A DNA stretch of 26,229 bases, from positions 1-26,229 of IMG/VR virus record IMGVR_UViG_3300006737_000164; one strand, given 5' to 3'. This document shows positions 701 to 25,694 of this stretch, piece after piece. This DNA is from a virus. The notes under the pieces were generated by a model, which was not told the DNA's origin, did no database searches, and worked only from the letters and a program-made list of their open reading frames with translations. Position numbers and translations under genes: made by a program. Numbering within the stretch: the stretch's first letter is position 1; each line of letters opens with the position of its first letter.

Positions 701-2947
701 TTATCTTATTATTTGACTTATGGAACTCTTATTGTTATATCTTGCAAAGTTAACACTTATTTTTGATTTTTGTTTAGTGGGTGTATACAGGTGCTTTTGA
801 TTAGCCATAATGGCCAAGCCAGAACTTATACTGGCATCAAACCTTGTTCTATTATTAATATCAAACTTTGCCCAGTCTTCTAAAGTTCTTTGAAAATACA
901 TGGTTCCTATTACTTCTGCATCTCTATAACTTCCTTCAAAATCAAAACCTATATGCTTTTCTATATACGACTCTATAGCGGCAGCATGAGACTGTTTTAC
1001 GTCTTCAGAAGAGTTTGGTATTCCTCCTAATTCTTTTTCTGTTTTTGATAATTTATTAAATCTTTTATCTGGTCTATTCATACAGTAACCCCTGTAACCT
1101 CTATTTTTAAAATGATACAATAATCTTGGTTTGTTATTTTCACACAATATAGGCATACCATAAAATACGCAGGCCATCAATACTTCTTCAAAAAATATTT
1201 CTGCTGTTTGAGGTCTTGCAATGTATTCTAAAAAAAATTCATTTGATGGCGCGTGATCCATGTTAAATTTAGTTAGACCATGCAACGCACCGTTAGACCC
1301 CTTTCCGACTACTACCCCAGAAATATCATAACTATCACAACCAAAAGATCCAATATGGTCATTACCAGGATATTTTTTTCCTAATTTAAGTATATGCCTG
1401 TTTTGCAATCTTTTCTCTGGCGTCCAAGTTACTAAAAATCTACCACTTTTATTTGGGCTAAATATTACTTCAGTATCTTTAACCCCGTCTTTCCAATGAA
1501 AAGACCCACGAGTAACATGATGATCTAATATGCATGAATCATTATAATCAATTTGTTGATATATTTTAGTTAAATTAAATAACGACTGCTTGCTTTCATC
1601 TCTAAATGCATGAGACTCAGTTCTTGGAAATTGTCTATAAAATTCGTTTAATGCATCAGCATCATTACTTAAAGAGCTTACTTCGTTTTCCCAATAATCT
1701 ATTGCTCCTATAGTAATGTCTTCTCCGTCAATACCAATGACAGGTTTTTTTGGAAGATGTAAAACAGGCATACCGTATTTATCTATATACCCTTCAAAAT
1801 TCCATTCCATAGGTATAAATAAATTATATAGACCTGATTTTGTTTGACCGTTTTGATTTCTTTTTGATGCGTCTGAATCTTCATATAATTTTTTAAAATT
1901 AGCCCCTCCTTTATCTAACGCATTAGATGTTGAGCCCATCATACATTTACCTATTATTTTACTACCAAGCCTTAAACAGGTCTTAGTAACTCGCCAATTA
2001 TTTAATATATTTTCTGGTCTTTCCCACTTACCACTTTCATCATGTAATAAGTATTGTAGCTTTTCACCATCATAAGAGTTATCAGACGTATTCTTCCAAT
2101 CAATAGTAGTATCAAGACCGTCAAGTTCCTCATCTCCAGTGTCATACATATTTTTCTTAGTAATTTTTGATGCTGGTACTCTGTATGCTAATTCTGTTTT
2201 TGGCTTATCCATACCATCTTGAATAGGTTTAAAGAAGAAAGGATAGTTATTAGATATAGGCACAACTTTGTCAGTAAACATTTTTTTAGCATCAGCTCCT
2301 GTTTTTGACAATATACCAATACGAGCGTCTCTGGTTATTGTTGCTTGATTTACACCTTCACAAGAACTCATAAAAGAAAAACCCGAACGTCTTATTTTTA
2401 AATAACACATTCCAAAACTTCTTTTGTCTGCTTTACAAGCCTCCCAAAAAATATAAAAAATTCTATTAGCTTCTCTAAAATCAGGGTTTCCTACATCTAT
2501 TTTTGTCCACTGTAAATACATATAATGAGTGCCAGTTATATATGTTGGCGATCCATTATTCATAAACCAATGTCCTTGCTCTCTTCTGTCAAACTCTTTT
2601 TCTATATAATCAACCCATTCTGATTTAAAATTTGGAGGGGTAGCGTGCCACTGAAATATTGACTGTATTCTTTTTAATTGTTTTGGTAAAATAGTAGGCG
2701 ACCAAAACTGATCTTCTTTTTTTTCTTTAGAGTTTACAAATTTTAAAGGTTTTTTTGGCAGTGCAATAATTACATTACTAATATTATATATTTCACCTAT
2801 TGTTCCGTCTCTTGATATTACTACTACTTTATATTTTTCATTGTATCCGTATTTCCAAGAACGTGCTTTATTTTTGTTGGTTACAACAGATTTAGGAATA
2901 TAATTATTTAATATTCTATATAAATTATTTTGATCTTGATTCAGCAA
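701..2947 (-). CDS. terL: Terminase large subunit (ATPase plus nuclease)
   Basis: The 748-residue protein is the motor that translocates and cuts phage DNA at the portal. The N-terminal ATPase domain shows a Walker A-like loop around residues 184-191 (KIRRSGFS), which replaces the usual GxxGxGK(S/T) form, and a Walker B around 299-305 (LLHDESG) with the DE pair. A motif C-like GSTSN sits near 338-342. The C-terminal RNase H-like nuclease domain has candidate acidic residues at D538 (GCDSYD) and E603 (CENNK), with a third metal ligand probably further on. Length and wording match TerL of crAss-like and marine Bacteroidetes phages as I remember them. It overlaps the preceding small gene by 23 bases and abuts the portal start. 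Confidence 0.93.
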   Translation of the reverse strand: MLNQDQNNLYRILNNYIPKSVVTNKNKARSWKYGYNEKYKVVVISRDGTIGEIYNISNVIIALPKKPLKFVNSKEKKEDQFWSPTILPKQLKRIQSIFQWHATPPNFKSEWVDYIEKEFDRREQGHWFMNNGSPTYITGTHYMYLQWTKIDVGNPDFREANRIFYIFWEACKADKRSFGMCYLKIRRSGFSFMSSCEGVNQATITRDARIGILSKTGADAKKMFTDKVVPISNNYPFFFKPIQDGMDKPKTELAYRVPASKITKKNMYDTGDEELDGLDTTIDWKNTSDNSYDGEKLQYLLHDESGKWERPENILNNWRVTKTCLRLGSKIIGKCMMGSTSNALDKGGANFKKLYEDSDASKRNQNGQTKSGLYNLFIPMEWNFEGYIDKYGMPVLHLPKKPVIGIDGEDITIGAIDYWENEVSSLSNDADALNEFYRQFPRTESHAFRDESKQSLFNLTKIYQQIDYNDSCILDHHVTRGSFHWKDGVKDTEVIFSPNKSGRFLVTWTPEKRLQNRHILKLGKKYPGNDHIGSFGCDSYDISGVVVGKGSNGALHGLTKFNMDHAPSNEFFLEYIARPQTAEIFFEEVLMACVFYGMPILCENNKPRLLYHFKNRGYRGYCMNRPDKRFNKLSKTEKELGGIPNSSEDVKQSHAAAIESYIEKHIGFDFEGSYRDAEVIGTMYFQRTLEDWAKFDINNRTRFDASISSGLAIMANQKHLYTPTKQKSKISVNFARYNNKSSISQIIR

Positions 2948-3203
2948 ATCCCTTTGGTGTGTTATTATTTGAGCTTACAATATTTCCTTCTAATAAATTT
3001 TTTTCTTCTTCTATTTTTCTTAATATTTCAAAAGCGTCCATTATACAAAGTTTTTTAGTTGCAGCTGCATTTTTTAATCTATCAGCCGCAAGCTCATCAT
3101 CAGCATCATATTTAATTATATCCTCCTTTGCAACTTTTATTAATTGTGCAACCGCCTTTTTGCCAGCTTCTATTATTTTTATTTTCAGCTCTTTACTTTC
3201 CAT
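2925..3203 (-). CDS. Small helical protein upstream of TerL (candidate small terminase subunit)
   Basis: The 92-residue, charged, predicted all-helical protein has a conserved-looking core A-D-R-L-K-N-A-A-A-T-K-K near residues 40-51, followed by an amphipathic D-A-F-E-I-L-R-K-I-E-E-E helix. Its end overlaps TerL by 23 bases and its start overlaps the preceding gene by 11 bases, so it is translationally coupled to both. A small helical protein directly before TerL is where the DNA-recognising small terminase subunit normally lies, but I see no clear helix-turn-helix DNA-binding motif. The TerS role is inferred from position only; a structural or scaffolding role is possible. Confidence 0.6.
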   Translation of the reverse strand: MESKELKIKIIEAGKKAVAQLIKVAKEDIIKYDADDELAADRLKNAAATKKLCIMDAFEILRKIEEEKNLLEGNIVSSNNNTPKGFAESRSK

Positions 3204-3765
3204 CTAATATAGTTGTTATATTGTTAGTAAACATTCTGTATAATAATTCTCCATCAATATTAAACTCATATTCACTTTCTGGTTTAAATATTATTTTGTC
3301 TCCTTCTTTTACTCCTAACTTATCCAGTTGTAAATTAGAATATTTAAGTATACCTTGTAATGGCTCGTGCTTTGTGTTTTTTAACAATACTGAATCTTCA
3401 ACAGGTATTGGTTTTACAAAACAATATTTACCATGTGCTTTCCAGTTATTGTTTCTTTTATATAAAAAAAACTGATCGTTTTCAACAAAAAATAAATTTT
3501 CTTTAAAATAACTTTTTCCGCTTTTTCTACGACCATACATGTCATTATAAAATTTAAAAACATTGTGATGAACTATTAGTGTGTCTCCTGGCTTTACTTC
3601 TCCTTTATAATTTAAAGGAAGAGAAATTACAGTAGCAAAACGGTTAGATGATTTATGATCTTCTTCAGAAACGCTTGTTATAAAATCTATATCTTTAAGC
3701 TTCTTAATGTTATCATATCTTCTTTCATTATAAGGTTTTACAATAAAGGAATCAATTGATTGCAT
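3193..3765 (-). CDS. Tandem GroES-fold protein next to the packaging genes
   Basis: The 190-residue protein appears to contain two successive GroES-like beta-barrels. Copy 1 spans about residues 5-103: FIVKP, then ATVISLPLNY, the VKPGDTLIVHHNVFKF strand pair, and LFFVENDQFFLY at the end. Copy 2 spans about 112-187: KYCFVKPIPVEDS, then EPLQGILKYS, GVKEGDKIIFKPESEYEFNI, DGE, and YRMFTNNITTIL. The order VxVKP / G-x-V / VKxGDxVxFxKxxxxE / DGExYxxxxxxDIxxIL is that of GroES. The GGIxL-type mobile loop that binds GroEL is not evident in either copy. It is distinct from the conventional GroES at 22385-22642. It starts inside the stop of its upstream neighbour (TAATG). The fold call is moderately sure; the function is unknown. 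Confidence 0.65.
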   Translation of the reverse strand: MQSIDSFIVKPYNERRYDNIKKLKDIDFITSVSEEDHKSSNRFATVISLPLNYKGEVKPGDTLIVHHNVFKFYNDMYGRRKSGKSYFKENLFFVENDQFFLYKRNNNWKAHGKYCFVKPIPVEDSVLLKNTKHEPLQGILKYSNLQLDKLGVKEGDKIIFKPESEYEFNIDGELLYRMFTNNITTILDGK

Positions 3766-7100: not shown

Positions 7101-10100
7101 TCCGTCTGTTATAGTTTGTGTTGCTGGAACATTATCAGATATATCAAAACTAAATGATGTAGTTACTGTTGACCATGTACCGTCACCCTTTAAAAACTTA
7201 TCATAATCTTGAGATGCTGCCAGTGGTGCTGGTACAGCACCTTTTGTACCATCAGCAGGGGCACTTGTTGCTCCTGTAAAAGTATTTACAGATACCGCTG
7301 GTATTGCTGGGTTTGTTGTGTTATCAACTTGTATAGGTAGGGTACCAGATACTGATGTTACTGTACCACCCCCAGCCATTGTTGTCCAACCTGCTGTGCT
7401 CAAGAACTTTCCGTCATCAGCTACCTGAGGAGCTGGTACAGCTCCTTTTAATCCTGGATTACCTCCTGGAACATCTGGCGCTGTAAAATCATCTAAATTA
7501 ATAGTTACCTTACCTGGGTTAAAACCTGCTGGAGCTGTCGCAGATGTTGTTACCCCAGTTCCTCCTACCCAATTTACAGCTACGCCATCTAATACTCCTA
7601 AACTCTGTGTGCCATCACTACCAAACTTCCAGGCAAAATAAGAATTATTTACTTCCCAAGTACCATCTACTTTTAAAAACCTTCCTGTACCAAAGTATGA
7701 AGATAATGGTGCAGGAACCGCCCCTATTGTTCCAGCCGCTGTAGCAGTAGGACCTGTAAAAGCACTTAATCCAAAGTTAATAATTGGATCTATTGATGGA
7801 GAAGTTGGAGATGTTACTGTTACGTCTATACCTGCCGAATCTACAAATTTAATTTTACCCTTAGGAGTATTACCTAAATAATTTGGAAAATTTTTACCTA
7901 TCTGTACATTTGCTGTAGTGGTATTATCAGTTACTTCTATACCAGAGTTATATATAACAGATTTTGCAACTGAGTTTAAAGTAAGTCTTGTAACATCATC
8001 ATTTGGAAACTGGCTTGAATTTTTAGAAATAAGCATATAACCTTCATCAGACCAACCTGTTATTAGAGCATCAGCCGCTGTCATTATTAAGTTGTTAGGG
8101 CTATCATTATAGTTTAATGAAACTACATTAGTAGTAGCATTTATATCAATAGGATCTGTTGATGTATACACCTGCCCTGGTGCTGTTGTCCAACCTGCTG
8201 TGCTTAAAAATTTACCATCATCTGCTACTAATGGTGTTGGAACTGTCCCTTTTGATCCATTCGTACTTGTTGAAACGTCTGGCCCTGTAAAGTCATTTAT
8301 GTTTAATGCTGGTATTGCTGGATCTGTTGTTGAATCTACAGTTAATGGAGCGGTTACAGAAACCCCTGTTAGTGTTCCTGATCCTGAAGGTGTACCCCAT
8401 GTTCCATCTCCTTTTAAAAACTTATTGTAATCATTACTTGCTGCCAAAGGTTGAGGAACTAATCCTACTGTTCCATTTGTTCCGTTTGGTAGTGGTGTGC
8501 TTGCTGCACCCGAAAATACGCTATATTCTGTATTCGGTGGTATAGCCCACGTGTTATCTGCTCTTAAATAAGACTGAGATACAGTTGTCCCATCTAAGCC
8601 TGCTGTTGAAGCTGTTAATCCAGCAGTTAATATATTTGTTCCGCTAATATCTAACCCAATGTATCTATAATCAACAGTATCTATAGTATTTATTTGTTCA
8701 GTAAATGTTAGAGTGTTGTTTGTTACGTCTATTGTTCCAGTATTACTTGTTGGGTCAGTAGCTATTCCAAATGAGGTTAATCCTGATGCTGTAGCAGAAT
8801 CTATAGTAATTCCGTTTGCTGTTGTTGTTATAGTAGTACCCCCTGTTCCTGTTAGTGTTACAACATCATCTGTTCCATTTCCAGATAATACAATTTGATT
8901 TGCAACAGGAACTGTTCCAACTGCAAAAGTAGCATTACCATCTCCTCCTGTTACTGTTATAACTTCTGAATCTACATATCCTGACCCACTTTGTACTGTG
9001 CTAAATGCAGTGATATCACCATTACCCCCAACACTCACTACGTTTACTGTAAATCCTCTTCCGTTTCCGCTTGATGTAGTTTGGTATATTCCAGGAGTAT
9101 AATTAGTTCCAGTGTTTCCTTGTGATATTATTGAATTTGTTATACCTGGTCCAGCTCCTAACTGATAATCAGTAGAGCCATTACTTATAGCTGTTACAAT
9201 ACCTCTGTCCGATACAGTAACATTAGCTGATGTGTATGATCCAGCTACTACCCCAGATGTAGGTATTTCAACTGTTAAGGTTCCGCTTGTTGTTATTGGA
9301 GAACCAGTTACGGTTAAATTTGTGCTTGTAAGAGCTACGCTTGATACACTTCCGCCTCCTGCTGATGATGATAGTGTTAAATCATTGGAAGCGTCTACAG
9401 TCATAGCAATGTTACTACCCGCGTCTATATTTACTGTACTTGATCTTGTTCCGTCTGTGTTTGTTAGTCCTACTGTGTTTGTTGTTACTGATGCTATTTC
9501 AAAAGTAGCATCATCTGAAGAACCACCTTGTATTACTGTTATTACATCTCCCACTGAGTATCCTGTAGGAGAACCTCCTAATGCGTCTATTACTGTAACC
9601 TCTCCTGCTACAGCAGTTATATTAACAAGTAAGCCTGATCCTGATGAAGATTGTGTTCCAACCCCAGTAGCTGTTACGTATCCTGTTGACCCTGTACTTG
9701 ATAAATTACTTGCTGATGCTGGTGTTCCTGTTTTTGAAAAACTTAAATTCCAGTCTGATCCAACTGGAACAGAAAACGCTCCTGACCCGTCATAGTATTC
9801 AGTTGCTAACCCCCCTGCTAATCCATTTGTTATTAAAGACGCTGTAACGTCTGGAAAATCTGTTGGGTTTGAAACGCTTAAGTCTAAATATGTGCTGTCT
9901 GTAACGCTAACTGATTCAACTGTTCCTGTTCCTGTTCCTGCATTTGACCATGATGGTCCAGCGTTAGCCCCTCCAGAAATTAAAACTTGTCCTGCTGTAC
10001 CTACGTCTCCATCTAAAAAGAGTTCTGTATCTTCTAAAGATAAAGATCCAGATTCTACAGTTAGTAAACCATTAGTTGCGCTTGCAGTAGCATCACCGTT

Positions 10101-11180
10101 ACCAGTTAAATATATATTTGCAAGGTTTGTACCTACTGCATCTGCTGTCCCTCCGTTATTTAAAACTGACTGTAAGTCTTGAGTACCAGCAGCAGTAGAA
10201 CTCCATTCCATTGCATTACCCGCTGCATTTATAGCTAATACTTGACCCGCTGTTCCTGAAGAACCAGTTACGTTATTACCAAGATATATTCTACTACCTG
10301 TGTCTATAGTTATTGCTGCATCTGTTTGTCCTGTGCCTAATCCAGCAAATTGATTGTTTCCATTAAAAGAGTTATTTCCTTGTGATATTATTCTTGACTC
10401 AACATCAAGATTTATATTTGAGCCTCCCGTTCCCGTTCCGTCTCCCGTCATGCTAAACCCTTGCATAAGAGCTACGTTTCCTGCTGTTAAAACTTCTTGA
10501 AATGTAGGTGTTGTATTTGTTGGTGCGGCTGACCATTCTAACCCATCAGCAGCAGCATTTACAGCTAAAAATTCTCCAGCTAATCCAAAGGTTCCGTCTA
10601 CGGTTAATTGCTGTTTAGAATAAAAGTTAACCGCATAAGCATTAGTTCCAGTTGGATCTCCTAAATCTAAATTGTTATTTATAGCGGCAGGACCAGCCCA
10701 TAAAAATGAAGTATATTCACTACCAGTTAAAGATCCTAATGTTAGAGCAGTATTAGTAAAGTTCATACTACTATCGTCCGCATTTAAGACTCTACCCGTT
10801 ACTGTGTTTCCTTGCGCTACAGTCTCGTCCCATGTTTGAAGACCAGATGCTGAAGAATATTCCAAACCTGTAGCTGTTGCATTAACAACTAAAACCTGAC
10901 CCGCAGTACCAAATGAACCATTAACGGTTATTTGGGTACTTGCGTCCAGTTCTAATGTTCCAGTTAAATCAATTGTACCAGTGAGGTTTATATCCTCAAT
11001 GGCAGTATCTCCTGTTGTAAGTACAGATTGCAAATCTTGCAATACAGTTCCTGCGGCAAGGAGGTCGCTGACTAAAAAAGTTACTGTCTTATTGTTATCA
11101 CTTACGTCCGTTGCTATTAGTAAATCACTTGCATTAGGAGTGACCGTTGGATAAGCAGTCGTATTTTTTATTTTAGCCAT
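4146..11180 (-). CDS. Giant tail fibre / adhesin with YadA-like head repeats
   Basis: The 2344-residue protein is rich in Thr, Ser, Gly, Asn and Val and nearly free of Lys and Arg, typical of beta-structured fibres. The N-terminus (SDLLIATDVSDNNKTVTFLV, residues ~19-38) resembles the virion-docking start of the fibre at 16332-17054. A first block (about 90-420) repeats GTAGQVLxxNAxxxGLEWS four times. The middle (about 450-1750) repeats a module with a KFLKGDGTW signature at least five times, plus GKFLSTAGWTT twice. The last ~400 residues (about 1914-2311) hold some 23 xxIAIGxxAL-type repeats, the left-handed beta-roll of trimeric autotransporter heads. The C-terminus (TWEVRINGVNYLIPIV) may be a trimerisation cap. 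It probably forms long host-binding trimers. It lies 17 bases after the upstream gene. Confidence 0.85.
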   Translation of the reverse strand: MAKIKNTTAYPTVTPNASDLLIATDVSDNNKTVTFLVSDLLAAGTVLQDLQSVLTTGDTAIEDINLTGTIDLTGTLELDASTQITVNGSFGTAGQVLVVNATATGLEYSSASGLQTWDETVAQGNTVTGRVLNADDSSMNFTNTALTLGSLTGSEYTSFLWAGPAAINNNLDLGDPTGTNAYAVNFYSKQQLTVDGTFGLAGEFLAVNAAADGLEWSAAPTNTTPTFQEVLTAGNVALMQGFSMTGDGTGTGGSNINLDVESRIISQGNNSFNGNNQFAGLGTGQTDAAITIDTGSRIYLGNNVTGSSGTAGQVLAINAAGNAMEWSSTAAGTQDLQSVLNNGGTADAVGTNLANIYLTGNGDATASATNGLLTVESGSLSLEDTELFLDGDVGTAGQVLISGGANAGPSWSNAGTGTGTVESVSVTDSTYLDLSVSNPTDFPDVTASLITNGLAGGLATEYYDGSGAFSVPVGSDWNLSFSKTGTPASASNLSSTGSTGYVTATGVGTQSSSGSGLLVNITAVAGEVTVIDALGGSPTGYSVGDVITVIQGGSSDDATFEIASVTTNTVGLTNTDGTRSSTVNIDAGSNIAMTVDASNDLTLSSSAGGGSVSSVALTSTNLTVTGSPITTSGTLTVEIPTSGVVAGSYTSANVTVSDRGIVTAISNGSTDYQLGAGPGITNSIISQGNTGTNYTPGIYQTTSSGNGRGFTVNVVSVGGNGDITAFSTVQSGSGYVDSEVITVTGGDGNATFAVGTVPVANQIVLSGNGTDDVVTLTGTGGTTITTTANGITIDSATASGLTSFGIATDPTSNTGTIDVTNNTLTFTEQINTIDTVDYRYIGLDISGTNILTAGLTASTAGLDGTTVSQSYLRADNTWAIPPNTEYSVFSGAASTPLPNGTNGTVGLVPQPLAASNDYNKFLKGDGTWGTPSGSGTLTGVSVTAPLTVDSTTDPAIPALNINDFTGPDVSTSTNGSKGTVPTPLVADDGKFLSTAGWTTAPGQVYTSTDPIDINATTNVVSLNYNDSPNNLIMTAADALITGWSDEGYMLISKNSSQFPNDDVTRLTLNSVAKSVIYNSGIEVTDNTTTANVQIGKNFPNYLGNTPKGKIKFVDSAGIDVTVTSPTSPSIDPIINFGLSAFTGPTATAAGTIGAVPAPLSSYFGTGRFLKVDGTWEVNNSYFAWKFGSDGTQSLGVLDGVAVNWVGGTGVTTSATAPAGFNPGKVTINLDDFTAPDVPGGNPGLKGAVPAPQVADDGKFLSTAGWTTMAGGGTVTSVSGTLPIQVDNTTNPAIPAVSVNTFTGATSAPADGTKGAVPAPLAASQDYDKFLKGDGTWSTVTTSFSFDISDNVPATQTITDGNTITFSGGTDITSAVSATDTVTFSHDTITRTDTASTATPGQGGSFSVIKDITSSAQGHITAADVVTVTLPNSDDYQDWTLAGDQGNNHTISSNDTVTMNGFGGITVALTSNPTPDAVNISLQAFSGASSGTNGVAGGVPIPLGQGLNTDYDKFLKGDGTWATPATSYSWSADADNSAGVSINDAGQVKWVGGVGVNTTIATGSPNTITTDLDVSKLTQSTVTGNDFIAGEETTTNTTVKFKISDLPFTNNSGTVSSVGITADNAAGTGITTTGSFTFSGGTLITTSVTGNTVTFNQSTVTRTNSTSSSSIVVGGNFTAIDSITSNGTGHITAVNTKTVTLPSAYQGATNSADGVSGFVPQPISSTDDQTKYLKGDGTWSLDGLVTSIVAGTGITVSGATGNVTVNAANNGTVTSVNLTGNTGTGSAITSSGTFDIDGITSASAGATTDHFNGISTTASGFNLDIKGFAIPDENEYWVYRANDQTGSSAMGLEKSILYGYDDTYKSLAIANNEVAKEGYTLVLGASKNSRAYIFNAGNTTYRWSNVDAAGTTDSSTNSIFIGANAGAAAASNTDNIGIGSNALLASTNGASNIALGTDSGKALLAGARNILIGKSAGQSLAAADDNIAIGELSLSTANSADADQNIALGKNTLSTLTSGARNIAIGHQALADGVLVQTDNIFMGYQAGMESFGGADIGIGYQALLYGSNSTPNVNTNEETGRVAIGYKALAGGSGTAVQGVGNVALGGHAGEFNATSVVGGAVYVGYYAGNNTNGITTAGFGQVAIGYNAMKFTVPSQSIAIGYLAMEDAASPTIGGESHVAIGKGAMRTATVTGNNNIAIGTDANTNTVNVVSAVISLGYQSKAKGSCTIAIGCQASAGDGAASTDSIAIGNDANTAGTKSISIGRNASTTGAQSISLGDNAQVIDDYSVAIGAGASTNAANQLAFGTAAQNLGSIVTQTITPNKTWEVRINGVNYLIPIVAAP
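4246..5440 (-). repeat. About 23 YadA-head-like IAIGxxA protein repeats
   Basis: Within the giant fibre, units such as NIAIGSNAL, NILIGKSAG, NIALGKNTL, RVAIGYKAL, QVAIGYNAM, SIAIGYLAM, NIAIGTDAN, SISIGRNAS and SVAIGAGAS recur at intervals of roughly 14-30 residues. This [NS]-[IV]-[AS]-[IL]-G-x-x-A pattern is that of the trimeric autotransporter adhesin head. The DNA of the units has diverged, so these are protein repeats and not recent DNA duplications. Confidence 0.8.
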
Positions 11181-19184: not shown

Positions 19185-19454
19185 TTAGTTTGTTTGATCT
19201 TGCCTTTCTCTCATATTAAAAGCAGTTCTTGGTCTGCTTGTAGTATATGTTTTTGTAGGCACTTTTTCTTTTTCTTTTTCGCTTAAAACCTTAATAGTCT
19301 TTTTTAACTCTTCAATAATTTCAGGAGGTGGAGCAACTGTTCTACCTGTGACAGTTTTATCTGCCTTAATTTTATTTTCGTAAGTTAAATTTTCTTTTTG
19401 CTTAGGGTCTTTTTTAAGCAAGTCTTTTCTTTTGCCTTTTGATTTTTTTGCCAT
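19185..19454 (-). CDS. Small lysine-rich protein
   Basis: The 89-residue protein is very basic at the start (MAKKSKGKRKDLLKKDPKQK), has a proline patch (VAPPPEIIEELKKTIKVLSE), and ends in a polar tail. It is probably partly disordered. Its ATG is preceded by the leader TAAAATTAAATTCAATG, nearly the same as that of groEL. It is one of ten small, mostly basic genes in a row; binding to DNA or packaging in the virion is only a guess. Confidence 0.7.
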   Translation of the reverse strand: MAKKSKGKRKDLLKKDPKQKENLTYENKIKADKTVTGRTVAPPPEIIEELKKTIKVLSEKEKEKVPTKTYTTSRPRTAFNMRERQDQTN

Positions 19455-19473
19455 TGAATTTAATTTTAGTTAA

Positions 19474-19680
19474 TTACGCTTTTGTTTTACAACCAAAGTT
19501 TTTAGCATAATTAGCCATCTTTACAACGGGCTCAGAATATTTTTTAGTGTTTTTCATTACAGCGTTAGCTGCGCTGCAAGCGTCACTAAAACCATTACGT
19601 TTTGCCCAAGATGTAAATTTACCTTGGTTGCTTTTTTTTATTTCTGGAAAAGCTCCTTTCTTCTTTGTACGACCTGGCAT
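19474..19680 (-). CDS. Small basic protein of a phage-common type (68 aa)
   Basis: I choose the ATG at 19680 (MPGRTKKKGAFPEIKKSNQG) because it sits in a TAATG overlap with the stop of the upstream gene; the longer reading adds nine residues that lie in the neighbour's frame. The protein continues KFTSWAKRNGFSDACSAANA and ends YAKNFGCKTKA. The W-A-K-R-x-G-x-x-x-A-C-x-A-A-x-x-V-M core and terminal N-F-G-C are familiar from small basic proteins of marine phages, from memory. Function is unknown. Confidence 0.72.
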   Translation of the reverse strand: MPGRTKKKGAFPEIKKSNQGKFTSWAKRNGFSDACSAANAVMKNTKKYSEPVVKMANYAKNFGCKTKA

Positions 19681-19874
19681 TACTTTAAATGATCGTGAGT
19701 CTTCCAAGATGAAGTATGTCTGTATGACATAGACTTGTCTGCGCCATATGAATGACCATACATCTTCTTTGACATAGCTTTTGATTCATCTCTTCTGTCT
19801 TTCATTGATTGAGACTTCTTTCCATTTCTCATTCCTAAAGATTCGTCTAATCTATCGTTGTATCCTTGTTTCAT
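19680..19874 (-). CDS. Small Lys/Arg/Met-rich protein (64 aa)
   Basis: I place the start at the ATG at 19874 (MKQGYNDRLDESLGMRNGKK). A longer reading to 19952 would overlap the upstream gene by 62 bases and adds an unconserved-looking segment. The protein repeats a short D-R-R/L-D-E-S motif (DRLDESLGMRNGKK and DRRDESKAMSKKMYG) and ends with Y-R-H-T-S-S-W. This doubled motif suggests nucleic acid or virion protein contact, but no family is recognised. It is joined to the next gene by TAATG. Confidence 0.65.
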   Translation of the reverse strand: MKQGYNDRLDESLGMRNGKKSQSMKDRRDESKAMSKKMYGHSYGADKSMSYRHTSSWKTHDHLK

Positions 19875-19890
19875 TTTTTTATTTTTAAAA

Positions 19891-20061
19891 TTAATAACCT
19901 GAATTAGTTTTCTTCTCCATGCCATAATTAGGATTGTTCTTAATAGAACCATTCATAGTTTTGGCAAATTCTACTGCTTGAGCTTTTCCAACTGCATTGT
20001 AAGGAAAAGTTCTTTTCATTTTCTTACCCGTCATTGGGCATTTGTGAGTTACTGTAGGCAT
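19891..20061 (-). CDS. Small protein with CPMTGKK motif (56 aa)
   Basis: A 56-residue frame begins MPTVTHKCPMTGKKMKRTFP, followed by YNAVGKAQAVEFAKTMNG, and ends NSGY. The basic CPMTGKKMK part and the helix with a K-A-Q-A-V-E-F-A-K pattern suggest a compact small domain. Its start lies three bases past the stop of the 57-residue gene (4-base gap region), matching the tight packing of the cluster. No function is suggested. Confidence 0.62.
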   Translation of the reverse strand: MPTVTHKCPMTGKKMKRTFPYNAVGKAQAVEFAKTMNGSIKNNPNYGMEKKTNSGY

Positions 20062-20063
20062 AG

Positions 20064-20237
20064 TTAAGCTTTTTTATTTTTTTTATTTCTATTTCTTAAT
20101 GCTGCAAAATCACTACCAGTAATTTTATTAAACGGTGGTGTCATTCCAGCTATTTTTTTCTGTCCTGCTGACAACTTATCAATATCTTTATTTTTAAAAT
20201 TAATATTGTTGTAGTCTTTTTTATTCATTTTTCCCAT
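20064..20237 (-). CDS. Small basic protein with ITGxDFxALR motif (57 aa)
   Basis: The frame begins MGKMNKKDYNNINFKNKDID, continues KLSAGQKKIAGMTPPFNKIT and ends GSDFAALRNRNKKNKKA. The combination S-A-x-Q-K-K-I-A and N-K-I-T-G-x-D-F-x-A-L-R is one I remember from very small proteins in marine phage structural regions. A promoter box ends only four bases before the first ATG, so the transcript would be almost leaderless, or the real start is the second ATG at 20228 (54 residues). Function unknown. Confidence 0.68.
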   Translation of the reverse strand: MGKMNKKDYNNINFKNKDIDKLSAGQKKIAGMTPPFNKITGSDFAALRNRNKKNKKA

Positions 20238-20241
20238 AGTG

Positions 20242-20249
20242 CAAATATA
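20242..20249 (-). promoter_or_regulatory. Candidate -7 promoter box (TATATTTG) with almost no leader
   Basis: Minus-strand TATATTTG ends four bases before the ATG at 20237. With a start of transcription 5-7 bases after the box, the RNA would begin at or inside the first codon. This implies a leaderless message or use of the ATG at 20228. Confidence 0.5.
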
Positions 20250-20261
20250 ATAATTAATTTA

Positions 20262-20558
20262 TTAGCATCTCCAACGTCTTAAAGCCATAGCTTTTCTTGT
20301 TGGTCTTCCCTTTTTATCTTTTAGTGGACCCTTCATTCCTTTCATTCTTGCACAAAAAGATTTTCTTCTCGCTGCTCTTTTTCCTTTTGGGTCTTTTTCT
20401 GTTACCGCTGTTTTTAATTTACTACCAGGATTTGCTCTTCTATATGCCTTTACTCCCTTTTCAGTCATTCCAGCTCCTGACTTTGTAGATCTATAGTTAC
20501 CACCTTTACCAGTAGTCCTTCTTATTTGTCCCTTTTTAGTTCTTCCTCTGGTTGCCAT
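20262..20558 (-). CDS. Very basic small protein (possible DUF6321-type)
   Basis: The 98-residue protein is rich in Arg and Lys. After GRTKKGQIRRTTGKGGNYRS comes the core GMTEKGVKAYRRANPGSKLK, then TAVTEKDPKGKRAARRKSFC and ARMKGMKGPLKDKKGRPTRK, ending ALRRWRC. This wording matches a family I recall as DUF6321, present in phages and some algal viruses; I cannot verify it here. The charge and size suggest nucleic acid binding, perhaps virion DNA condensation, but that is inference. Its start overlaps the stop of the next upstream gene in TAATG. Confidence 0.75.
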   Translation of the reverse strand: MATRGRTKKGQIRRTTGKGGNYRSTKSGAGMTEKGVKAYRRANPGSKLKTAVTEKDPKGKRAARRKSFCARMKGMKGPLKDKKGRPTRKAMALRRWRC

Positions 20559-20788
20559 TACGATCTAACTTTTGCGTCTTTAGTATTACTAACTACTGTT
20601 TTGTTTGACTTCTTTTTTTTCCTTGCTGTTGCAGCTAATTGTCTTTTTGACAAAGAACGAGCTTTAGCCAAAGGCAGACATCTGTCTGGCTTTTTTTTAT
20701 TTTTTGATGTACCGCATGGTCCTTTTATTTTACCGTCTGTACCTATGCGAACCCATTTTTGTTTTACCCAGTTCTTTAAAGCCCCCAT
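20558..20788 (-). CDS. Small basic cysteine-containing protein (possible DUF5872-type)
   Basis: The 76-residue protein shows NWVKQKWVRIGTDGKIKGPC, GTSKNKKKPDRCLPLAKARS and LSKRQLAATARKKKKSNKTV. The arrangement W-V-x-I ... G-x-C-G ... R-C-x-P-x-x-K-A-x-S-[LM]-[ST]-K is that of a small family I remember as DUF5872, seen in cyanophages and large algal viruses (memory only). The two cysteines could bind metal or form a disulphide. It begins in a TAATG overlap with the 43-residue gene and ends in another with the 98-residue gene. Confidence 0.74.
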   Translation of the reverse strand: MGALKNWVKQKWVRIGTDGKIKGPCGTSKNKKKPDRCLPLAKARSLSKRQLAATARKKKKSNKTVVSNTKDAKVRS

Positions 20789-20919
20789 TACTTCTTCTTC
20801 TTTGGCTTTGATTTCATTGACATTAACATCTTATCTATTTTAGCTGCCTGTCCTTTGTGCATAGCTGACGCTTTTTTAAGTTCAGAAGCTATTTTTTTTA
20901 ATTTATTCTTATCTATCAT
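20788..20919 (-). CDS. Very small helical basic protein (43 aa)
   Basis: The frame begins MIDKNKLKKIASELKKASAM and ends MKSKPKKKK. It is a lysine-rich amphipathic helix. Its ATG overlaps the stop of the upstream gene (ATGA) and its stop overlaps the next start (TAATG), which strongly supports translation in spite of its size. No function can be given. Confidence 0.68.
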   Translation of the reverse strand: MIDKNKLKKIASELKKASAMHKGQAAKIDKMLMSMKSKPKKKK

Positions 20920-21074
20920 TTTGATTTTTTTGCGTAATTAGGGTCTTTACAATATTTACTTGCGGCCATGTTAGCATATGCACTTGGATAAGTATCAAAA
21001 GTTCTTTTTGCCCAAGCTATACCTGCTGCACAAATTTTATTGCCCTTACTTTTAGTTCTACCTTTTTTTGCCAT
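20916..21074 (-). CDS. Small basic protein with YPSAYAN motif (52 aa)
   Basis: The frame begins MAKKGRTKSKGNKICAAGIA, then WAKRTFDTYPSAYANMAASK, and ends YCKDPNYAKKSK. The K-I-C ... W-A-K-R-x-F-D-x-Y-P-S-A-Y-A-N core is one I recall from short basic proteins of marine phages and of large algal viruses. It is the first gene of the small basic cluster, with a promoter box 18 bases before the ATG, and its stop overlaps the next ATG by four bases. A virion-associated or DNA-binding role is a guess. Confidence 0.74.
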   Translation of the reverse strand: MAKKGRTKSKGNKICAAGIAWAKRTFDTYPSAYANMAASKYCKDPNYAKKSK

Positions 21075-21978: not shown

Positions 21979-22416
21979 ATGAAATATTCCCACGACTATC
22001 TAAAGTATTGGAGAGTTATTAGGTATTGGGTCAAGGCTAAATATGGTATTGGAACCCCTGATATTGATATGCTATTGTTTTTATACAGCGAAGACTACTT
22101 CAATAAAACAAAATTTAAAGAATTTGAAGAGCTAATGTCATGGGACGAAAAAAGATTTAACAGTATGCTGTCAAATGGATATATTCAAGTATGGAGAAAA
22201 GGATATGGTAAGCATACTACTTTATATGAGTTATCTCACAAAGGTAAGACTATAGCCAGAACAATATATCGTAAATTAAATGGAGAAGAAATATCTGAAA
22301 CAGCTCATCTAAATCCTCTATTTAGAAAAGACGCTTCTTATACTGACAAGCTTTACAGAAATTCTATAAAGAAACTTAATGAGTTTATAAAACAACAACG
22401 ATATCTCTCTCAGTAA
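21979..22416 (+). CDS. Winged-helix-like putative transcription regulator
   Basis: The 145-residue protein is the only plus-strand gene between 1 and 25.6 kb. It starts MKYSHDYLKYWRVIRYWVKA, continues with TPDIDMLLFLYSEDYFNKTK, then LSWDEKRFNSMLSNGYIQVW (putative recognition helix) and a basic wing RKGYGKHTTLYELSHKGKTI, which is the order of MarR-type winged helices (helices, recognition helix, L-x-x-x-G, wing, L-T/S-x-x-G-x). A C-terminal helical arm follows. I recall similar proteins in crAss-like and marine Bacteroidetes phages. Its last 32 bases overlap the end of groES on the opposite strand, so its transcript would be antisense to groES. A role in the early-late switch is inference. Confidence 0.72.
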   Translation: MKYSHDYLKYWRVIRYWVKAKYGIGTPDIDMLLFLYSEDYFNKTKFKEFEELMSWDEKRFNSMLSNGYIQVWRKGYGKHTTLYELSHKGKTIARTIYRKLNGEEISETAHLNPLFRKDASYTDKLYRNSIKKLNEFIKQQRYLSQ

Positions 22417-22642
22417 TAATAGTGTAAGAAGTATTATGGATAAGAAGGCTGAAACCAGCAGACTTGTCATAATAGATAATGTCGTTTGCTTTGATCGCTT
22501 GAACATCTGTTCCTTGTTTTATTACTTTACCTTTTTTATATCTGAACTCTCCTACATCAGCCGCAGTTAGTAAAAGCCCAGACTGTGTTTTTAACTCTTC
22601 TTCTATTGGTTGTATTATAACATTCTTTCCTATTGCTATCAT
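22385..22642 (-). CDS. groES: Co-chaperonin GroES
   Basis: The 85-residue protein is the lid that closes the GroEL chamber. It shows NVIIQPIEEELKTQSGLLLT, in which the segment EEELKTQSGLLL (about residues 14-25) corresponds to the mobile loop with its GGIVL-like tripeptide that contacts GroEL. Then come GKVIKQG, IKANDIIYYDKSAGFSLLIH and YTIITERDIVVVL, the typical closing strands. It is slightly shorter than the bacterial protein (about 97 residues), mainly in the roof region. It lies after groEL, separated by two small genes, in reverse of the common bacterial groES-groEL order. It is likely needed for folding of capsid or tail proteins. The end is overlapped by the plus-strand gene. Confidence 0.88.
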   Translation of the reverse strand: MIAIGKNVIIQPIEEELKTQSGLLLTAADVGEFRYKKGKVIKQGTDVQAIKANDIIYYDKSAGFSLLIHNTSYTIITERDIVVVL

Positions 22643-22643
22643 A

Positions 22644-22874
22644 TTATCTTTTTAGCTTATCATTTAATTGGTCGTGTAAAAACCTTTTAAAAGCTTTCTC
22701 CAAAGAATAAGCCTCTCTTACAGTTATCATTTGTTCTTCAAAAAGATCAGAAGCTAATTTATCTGCATATAAATCTACGTATAAATCCTGATCTAACCAT
22801 TCATTCCCATCTTTATCTACACCTCTAAGTAGGCTGTTTTTGCTAAACTGCTTTGTTCTGCTGTTTACTTTCAT
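22644..22874 (-). CDS. Small protein of unknown function in the chaperonin operon
   Basis: The 76-residue protein has an acidic centre (NEWLDQDLYVDLYADKLASD) and basic ends (MKVNSRTKQFSKN; FKRFLHDQLNDKLKR) and is probably helical. It stands one base before groES and just after groEL, hence is co-transcribed with both. It could be a substrate adaptor or unrelated; no motif is known to me. Confidence 0.7.
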   Translation of the reverse strand: MKVNSRTKQFSKNSLLRGVDKDGNEWLDQDLYVDLYADKLASDLFEEQMITVREAYSLEKAFKRFLHDQLNDKLKR

Positions 22875-22944
22875 ATTTTTTTAAATTTGATTCTATTTTA
22901 TTAATATCCCTTACCCTAAATAACCACAATAGCAGCTTAATCAT
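22843..22944 (-). CDS. Possible 33-residue hydrophobic/basic peptide after groEL
   Basis: One base after the groEL stop (TAATATG) an ATG opens a frame that begins MIKLLLWLFRVRDINKIESN and ends QQNKAV-stop. Its last 32 bases overlap the next gene in another frame. It fills an otherwise empty 71-base gap, and a start right next to a stop favours re-initiation. The hydrophobic start could reach the membrane. It may still be chance. Confidence 0.38.
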   Translation of the reverse strand: MIKLLLWLFRVRDINKIESNLKKYESKQQNKAV

Positions 22945-22945
22945 A

Positions 22946-24535
22946 TTACTCTGCTCTTACGTTCGTTACAATAGCATTAGTGCTTAATATTGTTGTTGCA
23001 ACACTAACTGCATTTATTAATGCGTTCTTTGTTACTTTTAATGGATCTATTACACCCATCTTAAACATATCACCAAAACAATCATTCTTCAGATCATACC
23101 CAGTATTGTATGGCTTATCAAATATATGATTTATTATTTTATCATAATCTTTTCCGCCATTATCTATAATTTGTTTTATAGGTGCCCTTAATGCTGTCTT
23201 TAAAATTAATGAAGCTACCTCAGCATTTTCATCTTTACTTTTGTGTTTGTCTAAAAGTAAAGATGCGCGAAATAATGAGATACCTCCACCAGCTACTATC
23301 CCTTCTTCTAATGCAGATCTTACTGCACATACAGAGTCATCAACTCTATCATACTTTTCTTTTTGCTCTATATCACTATTACCTCCAACATATATACAGC
23401 CAATAGATCCTGCTAAACTTGCTATTCTTTCATTGATAAACTTTCTGTCTACATTTTTTTCTACTGAATCTCTGGCTTCTTTTAATTCATCAATTCTAAT
23501 TTGTAGTTCTTCAGTTTTATTATGTTCTTTAATAACTATAGTGCTTTCATTGTTACATATTATTTTTTCTGCATGACCTAAATCTTTTGGCATAATAAGA
23601 CTTAAGTCGTCTCCAGTTTTTTCACTAAAGTATTTAGCTCCCACTGCTAATGCTATATCTTGCATTAGTTCATGGGTTTTATATCCAAATGATGGTGGGG
23701 CTATATTGCAAAACTTTAATCCATTACGAACTACGTTAGCCGCTAACGTATTTATAACATTAGTTGAACATGGAGCAATGATTAATAACTTGTCACCATT
23801 ATTTATTACTGGCTTCAAAACATTTTCTATTTGTAATATACTTTCTATAGATGCATCACACACTAATATCTTTACATCTTCAAGTATACACTCGTCTTTC
23901 TTTTGATTATTGATAAATAAGTTAGAAGAATAACCTCTTTCTATTTTTAATCCGTTTGTGACCTCTGCATATGTTGAAGAACTTTTAGATCTTTCAACAG
24001 TGACTATTCCGTTTATACCAACTTTGTCATATGCATCAGCTATTATATTACCAATAGACTTATCATTGTTTGCTGAAATACAAGCAACATCTAATAAACG
24101 ATCTTTAGTAATCTTTCTTGATTTCTTTTTTACTCCACCTATAACATCTTGAGTTAATTTATTTATATGTCTAATAATCTCTGTGGTATTATGCTCAGGT
24201 TTAATAAACTCTTGACCTGCCATAACAATTGCTTCCGTCAATACTATAGCAGTTGTTGTACCATCACCAGCAGAATTAGCAGTTCTATCTGCTGCACCCT
24301 TCATCATTTGAACAGCAAGGTTTTCAATAGGATCATTTAGAAATATAGAACGAGCTACTGTAACCCCATCTTTAGTTATTGTCATGCCTGATGTATGCTC
24401 AGGAGATTCTAACAAAACTGTTTTGCCTAATGGCCCTAATGTACTCTTTACTGTTTTAGATATTGATGTTATGCCTGTGATTAATTTTGATCTACCTTCA
24501 TCATCAAAACTCAAGGTCTTTGGAATGTAAGTCAT
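22946..24535 (-). CDS. groEL: Chaperonin GroEL (60 kDa family)
   Basis: The 529-residue protein forms the ring chamber for ATP-driven folding. Diagnostic segments: TVKSTLGPLGKTVLLES (28-44), TITKDGVTVARSI (52-64), SAGDGTTTAIVLTEA (88-102) with D91 matching catalytic D87 of E. coli GroEL, RVDDSVCAVRSALEEGIVAG (397-416) with D400 matching D398, GGG at 416-418, and GVIDPLKVTKNALINAVSVA (494-513). The apical part around 195-330 is the most divergent. The C-terminal GGM tail is absent; it ends VTNVRAE. It is strongly diverged from the bacterial type but all key ATP-site residues are kept, so it should be active. A promoter box lies 26 bases upstream and the leader is AT-rich. Confidence 0.95.
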   Translation of the reverse strand: MTYIPKTLSFDDEGRSKLITGITSISKTVKSTLGPLGKTVLLESPEHTSGMTITKDGVTVARSIFLNDPIENLAVQMMKGAADRTANSAGDGTTTAIVLTEAIVMAGQEFIKPEHNTTEIIRHINKLTQDVIGGVKKKSRKITKDRLLDVACISANNDKSIGNIIADAYDKVGINGIVTVERSKSSSTYAEVTNGLKIERGYSSNLFINNQKKDECILEDVKILVCDASIESILQIENVLKPVINNGDKLLIIAPCSTNVINTLAANVVRNGLKFCNIAPPSFGYKTHELMQDIALAVGAKYFSEKTGDDLSLIMPKDLGHAEKIICNNESTIVIKEHNKTEELQIRIDELKEARDSVEKNVDRKFINERIASLAGSIGCIYVGGNSDIEQKEKYDRVDDSVCAVRSALEEGIVAGGGISLFRASLLLDKHKSKDENAEVASLILKTALRAPIKQIIDNGGKDYDKIINHIFDKPYNTGYDLKNDCFGDMFKMGVIDPLKVTKNALINAVSVATTILSTNAIVTNVRAE

Positions 24536-24698: not shown

Positions 24699-24765
24699 AT
24701 AACATAGTTTTTATATAATATATTGTAAATCAATAAGTTAAGTCAAGTTACCTAAAGTTTTAGAA

Positions 24766-24820
24766 GCGACATAAACGCGACATAAACGCGACATATACGC
24801 GACATATACGTAACATATAG
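24766..24820. repeat. Five tandem 11-bp repeats (GCGACATAAAC type)
   Basis: The units are GCGACATAAAC (24766, 24777), GCGACATATAC (24788, 24799) and the degenerate GTAACATATAG (24810). A period of 11 places all copies on nearly the same face of the helix. The units are directly joined, with no spacers. Confidence 0.85.
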
Positions 24821-24854
24821 AAAAAAAAATAGGACAATCATTTTGATCGCCCTA
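24820..24854 (-). terminator. Rho-independent terminator after the 97-residue gene
   Basis: On the minus strand TAGGGCGATCA pairs with TGATTGTCCTA (11 positions, two of them G-U) around a 3-base loop and is followed by nine T residues (24829-24821). It lies 29 bases after the stop of the gene at 24884-25177 and separates it from the repeat region. Confidence 0.85.
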
Positions 24855-25177: not shown

Positions 25178-25694
25178 ATTATTTTCTTTTTTGTAAAGAT
25201 AATAAATTTTTGTTAGATAATTAGGGGTTGAGGGTACTACTACGTTATGCGCACACACGTGCCGCCAGAAAAACGCTTTTTTTTTGGGGTGGGGGGTTGT
25301 GATTTGTTTTTTTTTGGCTGGTTGTTTTGGCTTTTACTTTTGCCCTGTCTGGCTGCTGCTGGTCTGCTGCTGGTCGTCTGGCTGCTGCTGTTGGTGTCCT
25401 TGTTTGGTGTCCATATGCTGGACCGCGTCCCGCCCTTCCGCGTTCTCCTTCCCCCGTCTGGGGAGCTGTACACGTCCAAGCCTTCCCTTTTACCCCAGAG
25501 CGAACACGACCGAACACAAACAAAACCAACCGACAAAGTCACCGTAATTAATTGATTTTTAAATAGTTATTAACAATATTAATTAATTTATCAACAAGAG
25601 CTTATTTTTAATAAATTATTAACTATTTATTGTAGTTATTCCAATATTTTTTTGTAGTATTGCAAGTACAAATATTAATTAAATAAATAAACAC
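25178..25694. other. Divergent intergenic region at the strand switch with a GC-rich island
   Basis: Leftward genes end here and rightward genes begin. The middle (about 25245-25545) is around half G+C by hand count, against roughly one third around it. Its plus strand is G/T-rich on the left (two T9 runs, GGGGTGGGGGG, many CTG triplets) and C/A-rich on the right. Several frames are open on both strands, as expected from biased composition, and no single one looks like a protein. The last ~140 bases before 25695 are AT-rich with an inverted AAATAGTT / AACTATTT pair (25561, 25621). It may hold promoters, an origin or a structured RNA. Confidence 0.5.
25194..25201 (-). promoter_or_regulatory. 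Weak -7-like box (TATCTTTA)
   Basis: Minus-strand TATCTTTA differs from the TAnnTTTG consensus at the last base. It is 16 bases before the ATG at 25177, the same spacing as the clear boxes in the window. Confidence 0.35.

What the first reader, a model, noticed from the sequence alone, without database searches (positions are those of the whole stretch)
22385..24535. Phage-borne GroEL and GroES pair with separated, reversed order
A full-length, strongly diverged GroEL (ATP-site D91 and D400 kept, GGM tail absent) and a short GroES (85 residues) are encoded together, with one or two unknown small genes between. Most phages that bring chaperone genes carry only a GroES substitute (T4 gp31 type); a full GroEL is rare, and a pair in one operon is rarer. 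The small proteins between them are candidate specific partners.
Basis: partly seen in the sequence, partly recalled or inferred. Interest (0 to 1): 0.75.

Follow-up and report, generated by a model that had tools for sequence, protein, structure and literature searches.

The report
Phage chaperonin with two different lids

Summary
The pair is real. GroEL (529 aa, 22946-24535, minus) has an intact ATP site; GroES (85 aa, 22385-22642, minus) follows it with a 303-bp gap. Order GroEL->GroES on one strand held in 81/81 testable viral loci, the reverse in 79/79 bacterial loci. GroEL lies in a phage-only clade (support 100/100; nearest bacterial GroEL about 39%), so it is not a recent host capture. 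Phage GroEL/GroES pairs, and variable gene order, are already in the literature.

The "specific partners" idea fails: the 76-aa ORF between the genes is absent from a phage whose GroEL is 99% identical, lies between 9-bp direct repeats, and other relatives have nothing or unrelated genes there.

Less expected, and outside the given coordinates: a second, 190-aa GroES-like protein (3193-3765) sits just upstream of the terminase; its predicted fold matches Cpn20, the two-domain chloroplast co-chaperonin. It occurs in 26/28 records checked. All tandem-lid records of 56 kb or more also carry GroEL and single GroES. The GroEL client/GroES-binding groove is rewritten and fixed (E. coli L234->E, E238->K, V263/V264->A). 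I read this as an old, self-contained phage chaperonin module. The second lid's function is inferred.

The parts
22946..24535 (-). Phage GroEL (group I chaperonin), 529 aa
   Evidence: dN/dS 0.02-0.13 against relatives
22385..22642 (-). Phage GroES (single-domain co-chaperonin), 85 aa; roof loop reduced to 6 residues, mobile loop region 18 residues
   Evidence: AF2 model pLDDT 91.7 and Foldseek to GroES structures
22644..22874 (-). 76-aa ORF between GroEL and GroES; part of a recent, dispensable insert
   Evidence: no significant Pfam, PHROG or phage match (best E 0.035); close homologue only in L004, absent in L003 and L005
22843..22944 (-). 33-codon ORF starting 1 base after the GroEL stop and overlapping the 76-aa ORF; doubtful gene
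   Evidence: read from the sequence (alignment); not tested further
22638..22646 (-). 9-bp direct repeat TAATATGAT (stop + GroES start), one end of the insert
   Evidence: sequence
22940..22948 (-). 9-bp direct repeat TAATATGAT after GroEL, other end of the insert
   Evidence: sequence
3193..3765 (-). Second GroES-like protein, 190 aa, predicted tandem of two GroES folds (Cpn20-like), upstream of the terminase
   Evidence: phrog_13932 1.5e-23; 26/28 related records; AF2 pLDDT 85.1, Foldseek best hit Cpn20 7ekq_R; beside TerL in every locus examined
2925..3203 (-). 92-aa ORF between the tandem GroES-like gene and terminase, unknown
701..2947 (-). Terminase large subunit (conserved neighbour of the tandem GroES-like gene)
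   Evidence: phrog_6681 5.6e-172
21979..22416 (+). 145-aa gene converging on and overlapping the GroES 3' end; weak match to a PHROG transcriptional regulator; the conserved neighbour of the pair
   Evidence: phrog_12817 1.2e-6; convergent within 300 bp of GroES in 72 of 81 loci

Best explanation
The phage encodes its own working group I chaperonin. GroEL subunits form a seven-fold ATP-driven ring that takes up non-native (most likely phage) proteins. The 85-aa GroES is its dedicated lid; a conserved mobile loop (KTxSG[L/I]LLS) docks into an apical groove that has been rewritten relative to bacterial GroEL, so the pair is probably private and works beside, not through, the host machine. The lid's roof is nearly gone, as in T4 gp31, which would suit a bulky client such as a capsid or packaging protein. 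In this lineage the module has a third part, a 190-aa tandem GroES-like protein beside the terminase, most likely a second lid for the same chaperonin, used for virion or packaging proteins. Shown here: genes, ATP-site residues, phage-only ancestry, conserved order, fixed apical changes, purifying selection, tandem fold prediction, co-occurrence. Inferred: ring formation, lid binding, privacy from the host system, client identity and the second lid's role.
For: ATP-site residues T32, G34, K55, D56, D91, T93-T95, D400, D497 identical in 88/88 clade members. Purifying selection on GroEL, GroES and the tandem protein: dN/dS 0.02-0.13, 0.14-0.25, 0.03-0.13. GroEL->GroES on one strand in 81/81 viral loci. 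Phage-only clade 100/100, nearest bacterial GroEL 39.1%. Apical site: E. coli L234->E in 87/88, E238->K in 81/88, V263->A in 87/88, V264->A in 88/88, Y203->L in 81/88, while bacteria keep L/E/V/V/Y. GroES roof 6 residues in 37/37 against 10-15 in most bacteria, mobile-loop region 18 against 16; T4 gp31 likewise lacks the roof and has a longer loop (PMC6318259). Tandem protein. The related phage phi38:1 makes its GroEL (gp054) in infected cells and it is detected in free virions (PMC13288928).
Against: No experiment on this phage. E. coli L234E is, from memory of GroEL mutagenesis, a loss-of-binding change, so client or lid binding could be weakened rather than retuned. Inter-ring contact residues are not conserved, so ring architecture is uncertain. 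Jumbo-phage GroELs EL, OBP and AR9 work without any GroES (PMC9598537). The first half of the tandem protein is GroES-like by predicted structure only, not clearly by sequence.
Confidence: 0.72

Rival explanations
1. The tandem GroES-like protein is not a lid for GroEL but a virion or packaging factor that kept the fold; for instance a ring cap acting on the portal or terminase, much as GroES-type subunits sit in a Chlamydomonas ClpP complex.
For: Beside the terminase in every locus examined, not beside GroEL; best structural match is the Cpn20 chain of a ClpP complex entry; the second domain lacks a recognisable mobile loop.
Against: All tandem-protein records of 56 kb or more also carry GroEL and a single GroES; no record of that length with the tandem protein but without GroEL was found; the first domain has a low-confidence loop with an IGGxxFITS-like motif in relatives resembling a GroES mobile loop.
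Confidence: 0.25
2. Phage GroES and/or the tandem protein act mainly on host GroEL, T4 gp31-style, and phage GroEL is a side component.
For: gp31 precedent with similar roof and loop changes (PMC6318259); GroES keeps a mobile loop of the general group I type.
Against: GroEL has been kept with its ATP site under strong purifying selection and with GroES beside it; GroEL apical changes are fixed in the same lineage.
Confidence: 0.12
3. Recent capture of a host groE operon, or an assembly chimera.
For: Some other phage GroELs (Bacteroides DAC16, several Vibrio phages) do fall inside bacterial clades.
Against: This GroEL lies in a phage-only clade on a stem of about 1.1 changes per site, gene order is the reverse of the bacterial one, and 80 viral contigs share the gene.
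Confidence: 0.02
4. The small ORF(s) between GroEL and GroES are specific partners of this chaperonin.
For: Cotranscription is plausible; 51 of 81 loci have more than 60 bp between the genes and many of these hold an ORF.
Against: Absent in the 99%-identical L003 and in L005; 30 loci have a gap of 60 bp or less; the ORFs found belong to several unrelated families including a 2OG-Fe(II) oxygenase and a homing-endonuclease-like protein.
Confidence: 0.05

Closest known systems
GroEL/GroES of phi38:1-like flavophages (Cellulophaga phages phi38:1/phi40:1, Flavobacterium Elemovirus, Maribacter phage Panino)
   Same: GroEL plus single GroES plus the tandem GroES-like gene next to terminase; GroELs on one side of a branch, support 100/96
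   Different: GroEL only about 36-37% identical; Callevirus has GroES before GroEL with one ORF between; the fixed apical changes of the window clade are mostly not shared
Caudoviricetes sp. MW202828 (Manatee Spring)
   Same: GroEL 57%, GroES 48%, tandem protein 55% identical, same order, convergent gene annotated as repressor
   Different: GroEL and GroES genes overlap or abut; no ORF between
Bacterial groESL operon
   Same: Group I chaperonin and co-chaperonin, ATP site
   Different: Reverse gene order, 35-39% GroEL identity, rewritten apical groove, no Gly-Met tail, shorter roof
T4 gp31
   Same: Phage co-chaperonin without roof loop and with longer mobile loop (PMC6318259)
   Different: gp31 works with host GroEL; here a phage GroEL is encoded beside the lid
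Cpn20 (chloroplast/apicoplast double co-chaperonin)
   Same: Two GroES-like domains in one chain; best PDB match for the 190-aa protein
   Different: Pf-Cpn20 keeps mobile and roof loops in both halves (PMC3542282); here the second half lacks an evident mobile loop and the first half is GroES-like by predicted structure only; found in phages
Jumbo-phage chaperonins EL, OBP, AR9
   Same: Phage-encoded GroEL-like proteins
   Different: Phage EL GroEL about 25% identical; they need no co-chaperonin (PMC9598537); this one has its own GroES

Membership tests
Group I chaperonin (GroEL/Cpn60) | Full-length Cpn60 homology over equatorial, intermediate and apical domains | tested here: met
   529 aa, aligned 6-524 to PDB Cpn60s, E 2e-106
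Group I chaperonin (GroEL/Cpn60) | ATP-binding and hydrolysis residues (D52, D87, D398 and others, E. coli numbering) | tested here: met
   88/88 conserved in the clade
Group I chaperonin (GroEL/Cpn60) | Hydrophobic apical client/GroES site | tested here: inconclusive
   Y199, F204, L237 kept; L234->E, V263/V264->A, Y203->L
Group I chaperonin (GroEL/Cpn60) | Heptameric ring(s), ATPase, folding activity | not testable with these tools
   Inter-ring contact residues not conserved, so double ring is open
Cpn10/GroES | Cpn10 fold with GroEL-binding mobile loop | tested here: met
   Pfam 6.6e-11; KTxSG[L/I]LLS loop conserved; Foldseek TMq up to 0.82 to GroES
Cpn10/GroES | Roof (dome) hairpin | tested here: not met
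   6 residues where E. coli has 15 and most other bacteria sampled 10; gp31 lacks it too, so not a defining feature for membership
Cpn20 (tandem co-chaperonin) | Two GroES domains in one chain | tested here: inconclusive
   Structure: 7ekq_R E 1.2e-5, prob 1.00, TMq 0.55 over 211 columns. Sequence: second half matches GroES (hhalign E 2.6e-8), first half weak (8e-4)
Cpn20 (tandem co-chaperonin) | Mobile loop in each domain | tested here: inconclusive
   Loop-like low-confidence segment (residues 21-40) with IGGxxF motif in relatives, degenerate in the window; none evident in domain 2
Cpn20 (tandem co-chaperonin) | Caps a chaperonin | not testable with these tools
   Co-occurrence only
EL/OBP/AR9-type phage chaperonin | Works without co-chaperonin | not testable with these tools
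   Only the indirect sign was tested: a GroES is encoded beside GroEL in 81/81 testable loci, which argues against this type

The most novel reading that the evidence does not exclude
These phages run one private chaperonin with two interchangeable lids: a small roof-reduced GroES for general phage clients and a Cpn20-like tandem lid, encoded with the packaging genes, that forms a different (possibly symmetry-mismatched or mixed) ring for large capsid, portal or terminase clients. A two-lid phage chaperonin of this kind was not found described in the papers searched.
Probability: 0.3. Interest if true: 0.75.

Novelty: new variant of a known kind. Interest (0 to 1): 0.5.

Why it matters
Phage GroEL/GroES pairs are known but, as far as I found, the paired type has no structural or biochemical study; that work has been on the lid-less EL, OBP and AR9 chaperonins. 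This lineage offers a small (about 60 kb) phage with a complete private system, culturable relatives (Cellulophaga phi38:1, Flavobacterium Elemovirus), a fixed change at the best-studied substrate/GroES-binding residues of GroEL, and a double lid so far associated with chloroplasts and apicoplasts. It makes testable how a chaperonin-lid pair becomes orthogonal to the host's, and whether tandem lids serve particular clients.

Tried and rejected
Recent host capture: rejected by identity, gene order and tree. Small ORF as conserved partner: rejected; weak 16-bit similarities to ORFs in L027 and L053 only. Bacteroidota-type promoter upstream of GroEL: a lone TAnnTTTG 34 bases before the start without a -33 box, too weak to use. 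Marine et al. 2017, the key prior paper, is not in the library; its content is cited through PMC7185714 and PMC9611531. Tandem protein domain 1 versus domain 2 by profile comparison: no significant internal repeat signal, so the duplication rests on the model.

Full report
OBSERVATION. The window is a 26-kb virus record with portal, terminase, amidase, holin-like and tail-fibre-like genes. GroEL (22946-24535, minus, 529 aa) and GroES (22385-22642, minus, 85 aa) are unambiguous.

HOW COMMON. In 50,697 phage records 263 have a GroEL match, none over 60% identical to this one; the nearest is MW202828 at 57%. In IMG/VR, 183 confirmed stretches were found and the best 80 kept, 59-99% identical. In all 81 viral loci where both genes could be seen (two others showed no GroES in the stretch held), GroES follows GroEL on the same strand. 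In 79/79 bacterial loci where GroES was seen the order is the reverse. So reversed order is a lineage trait. It is also known in general: PMC9611531 quotes Marine et al. 2017 that subunit order follows GroEL phylogeny, and Nishimura et al. 2017 (PMC5332604) report GroEL in 36 of 78 phi38:1-like genomes.

THE GAP. The gap is at most 60 bp in 30 of 81 loci and up to about 1 kb in others, with ORFs of several unrelated families, including a 2OG-Fe(II) oxygenase and a NUMOD-domain protein. The closest phage, L003 (GroEL 99.1%), has a 1-bp gap. In the window and L004 an extra 302 bp are present, with TAATATGAT at both ends (22638-22646 and 22940-22948); this is the GroEL-stop/GroES-start sequence itself, as expected of an insertion or loss through a short repeat. 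The 76-aa ORF differs from its L004 copy by amino-acid changes only and no silent ones, too little to judge selection. These ORFs look like passengers. The steady neighbour is instead the convergent 145-aa gene at 21979-22416, a homologue of which lies within 300 bp of GroES in 72 of 81 loci.

ANCESTRY. A careful tree (52 rows) puts the window in a phage-only clade (100/100). With Elemovirus, Panino, Callevirus and one more viral GroEL it forms one side of a branch against bacteria and other phages (100/96). Long branches make the deeper joins uncertain. Phage GroELs of DAC16, LR756501 and Vibrio phages do fall inside bacteria, so the test can detect recent capture and did not here. Host: relatives infect Flavobacterium, Cellulophaga and Maribacter, so a Bacteroidota host is inferred, not shown.

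ANATOMY. The ATP site is invariant. The apical groove is not: E. coli L234->E, E238->K, V263->A, V264->A and Y203->L are nearly fixed in 88 clade sequences (some near-identical) while bacteria keep the original residues; by eye the local alignments are ungapped. From memory of GroEL mutagenesis, L234 is a residue whose change to Glu abolishes binding in E. coli, so a fixed Glu implies retuning to a private lid or client, or weakened binding. Inter-ring contacts (R452, A109, V464) are not kept, so single-ring operation is possible. GroES keeps its mobile loop, two residues longer, and has a 6-residue roof, resembling gp31 (PMC6318259).

THE SECOND LID. Window 3193-3765(-) encodes 190 aa, PHROG 'co-chaperonin GroES'. 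It occurs in 26 of 28 records behind GroEL loci; the two misses are contigs of 44 and 56 kb. In the phage collection it is in 77 records: 68 Flavobacterium sp. BAL314 phages (the Elemovirus set), 7 Cellulophaga, Panino and MW202828. It lies just upstream of terminase in every locus examined. Of 16 tandem-positive records, nine have GroEL and the same nine a single GroES; all seven of 56 kb or more do, and the seven without are 41-54 kb contigs. The AF2 model (pLDDT 85, pTM 0.79) best matches Cpn20, E 1.2e-5, then single GroES chains. By sequence only the second half is clearly GroES. Flavobacterium phage MaF61 has a 187-aa protein with two Cpn10 stretches directly before its own, very divergent GroEL, so double lids may have arisen more than once in phages.

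MECHANISM AND LIMITS. I take the GroEL/GroES pair as a functional private chaperonin made during infection (0.72 for the whole statement); the phi38:1 homologue is found in infected cells and virions (PMC13288928). That the tandem protein is a second lid is a likely but untested inference; a packaging-motor role is the main rival. No paper found in the searches describes the two-lid set, but the library is incomplete.

Noticed in passing
window 21979-22416(+): A 145-aa gene with weak similarity to a PHROG transcriptional regulator overlaps the GroES 3' end convergently; a homologue is in that place in 72 of 81 loci.
   Followed up: partly
L053, L054, L059, L060, L061, L067 between GroEL and GroES: A 185-aa 2OG-Fe(II) oxygenase (Pfam 3.5e-14 in L054) sits between GroEL and GroES in six related contigs.
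   Followed up: partly
L071:5965-6639(+): A NUMOD-domain, homing-endonuclease-like protein inserted between GroEL and GroES.
   Followed up: no
L201:2412-2975(+), Flavobacterium phage MaF61: 187-aa protein with two Cpn10 stretches directly upstream of a divergent GroEL: another double co-chaperonin in a different phage lineage.
   Followed up: partly
window 4146-11180(-): 2344-aa repetitive protein ending in YadA-like repeats (AIGxxAxxxA...); likely a giant adhesin or fibre.
   Followed up: no
window 19185-21074(-): Cluster of small, very lysine/arginine-rich ORFs (52-98 aa), possibly DNA-binding or packaged proteins.
   Followed up: no
window 25250-25550: Short, visibly G+C-richer low-complexity stretch with overlapping ORFs on both strands between divergent gene blocks; possible control region or assembly artefact.
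   Followed up: no
window 24750-24830: Short tandem repeats (CGACATAAACG / CGACATATACG) upstream of GroEL.
   Followed up: no
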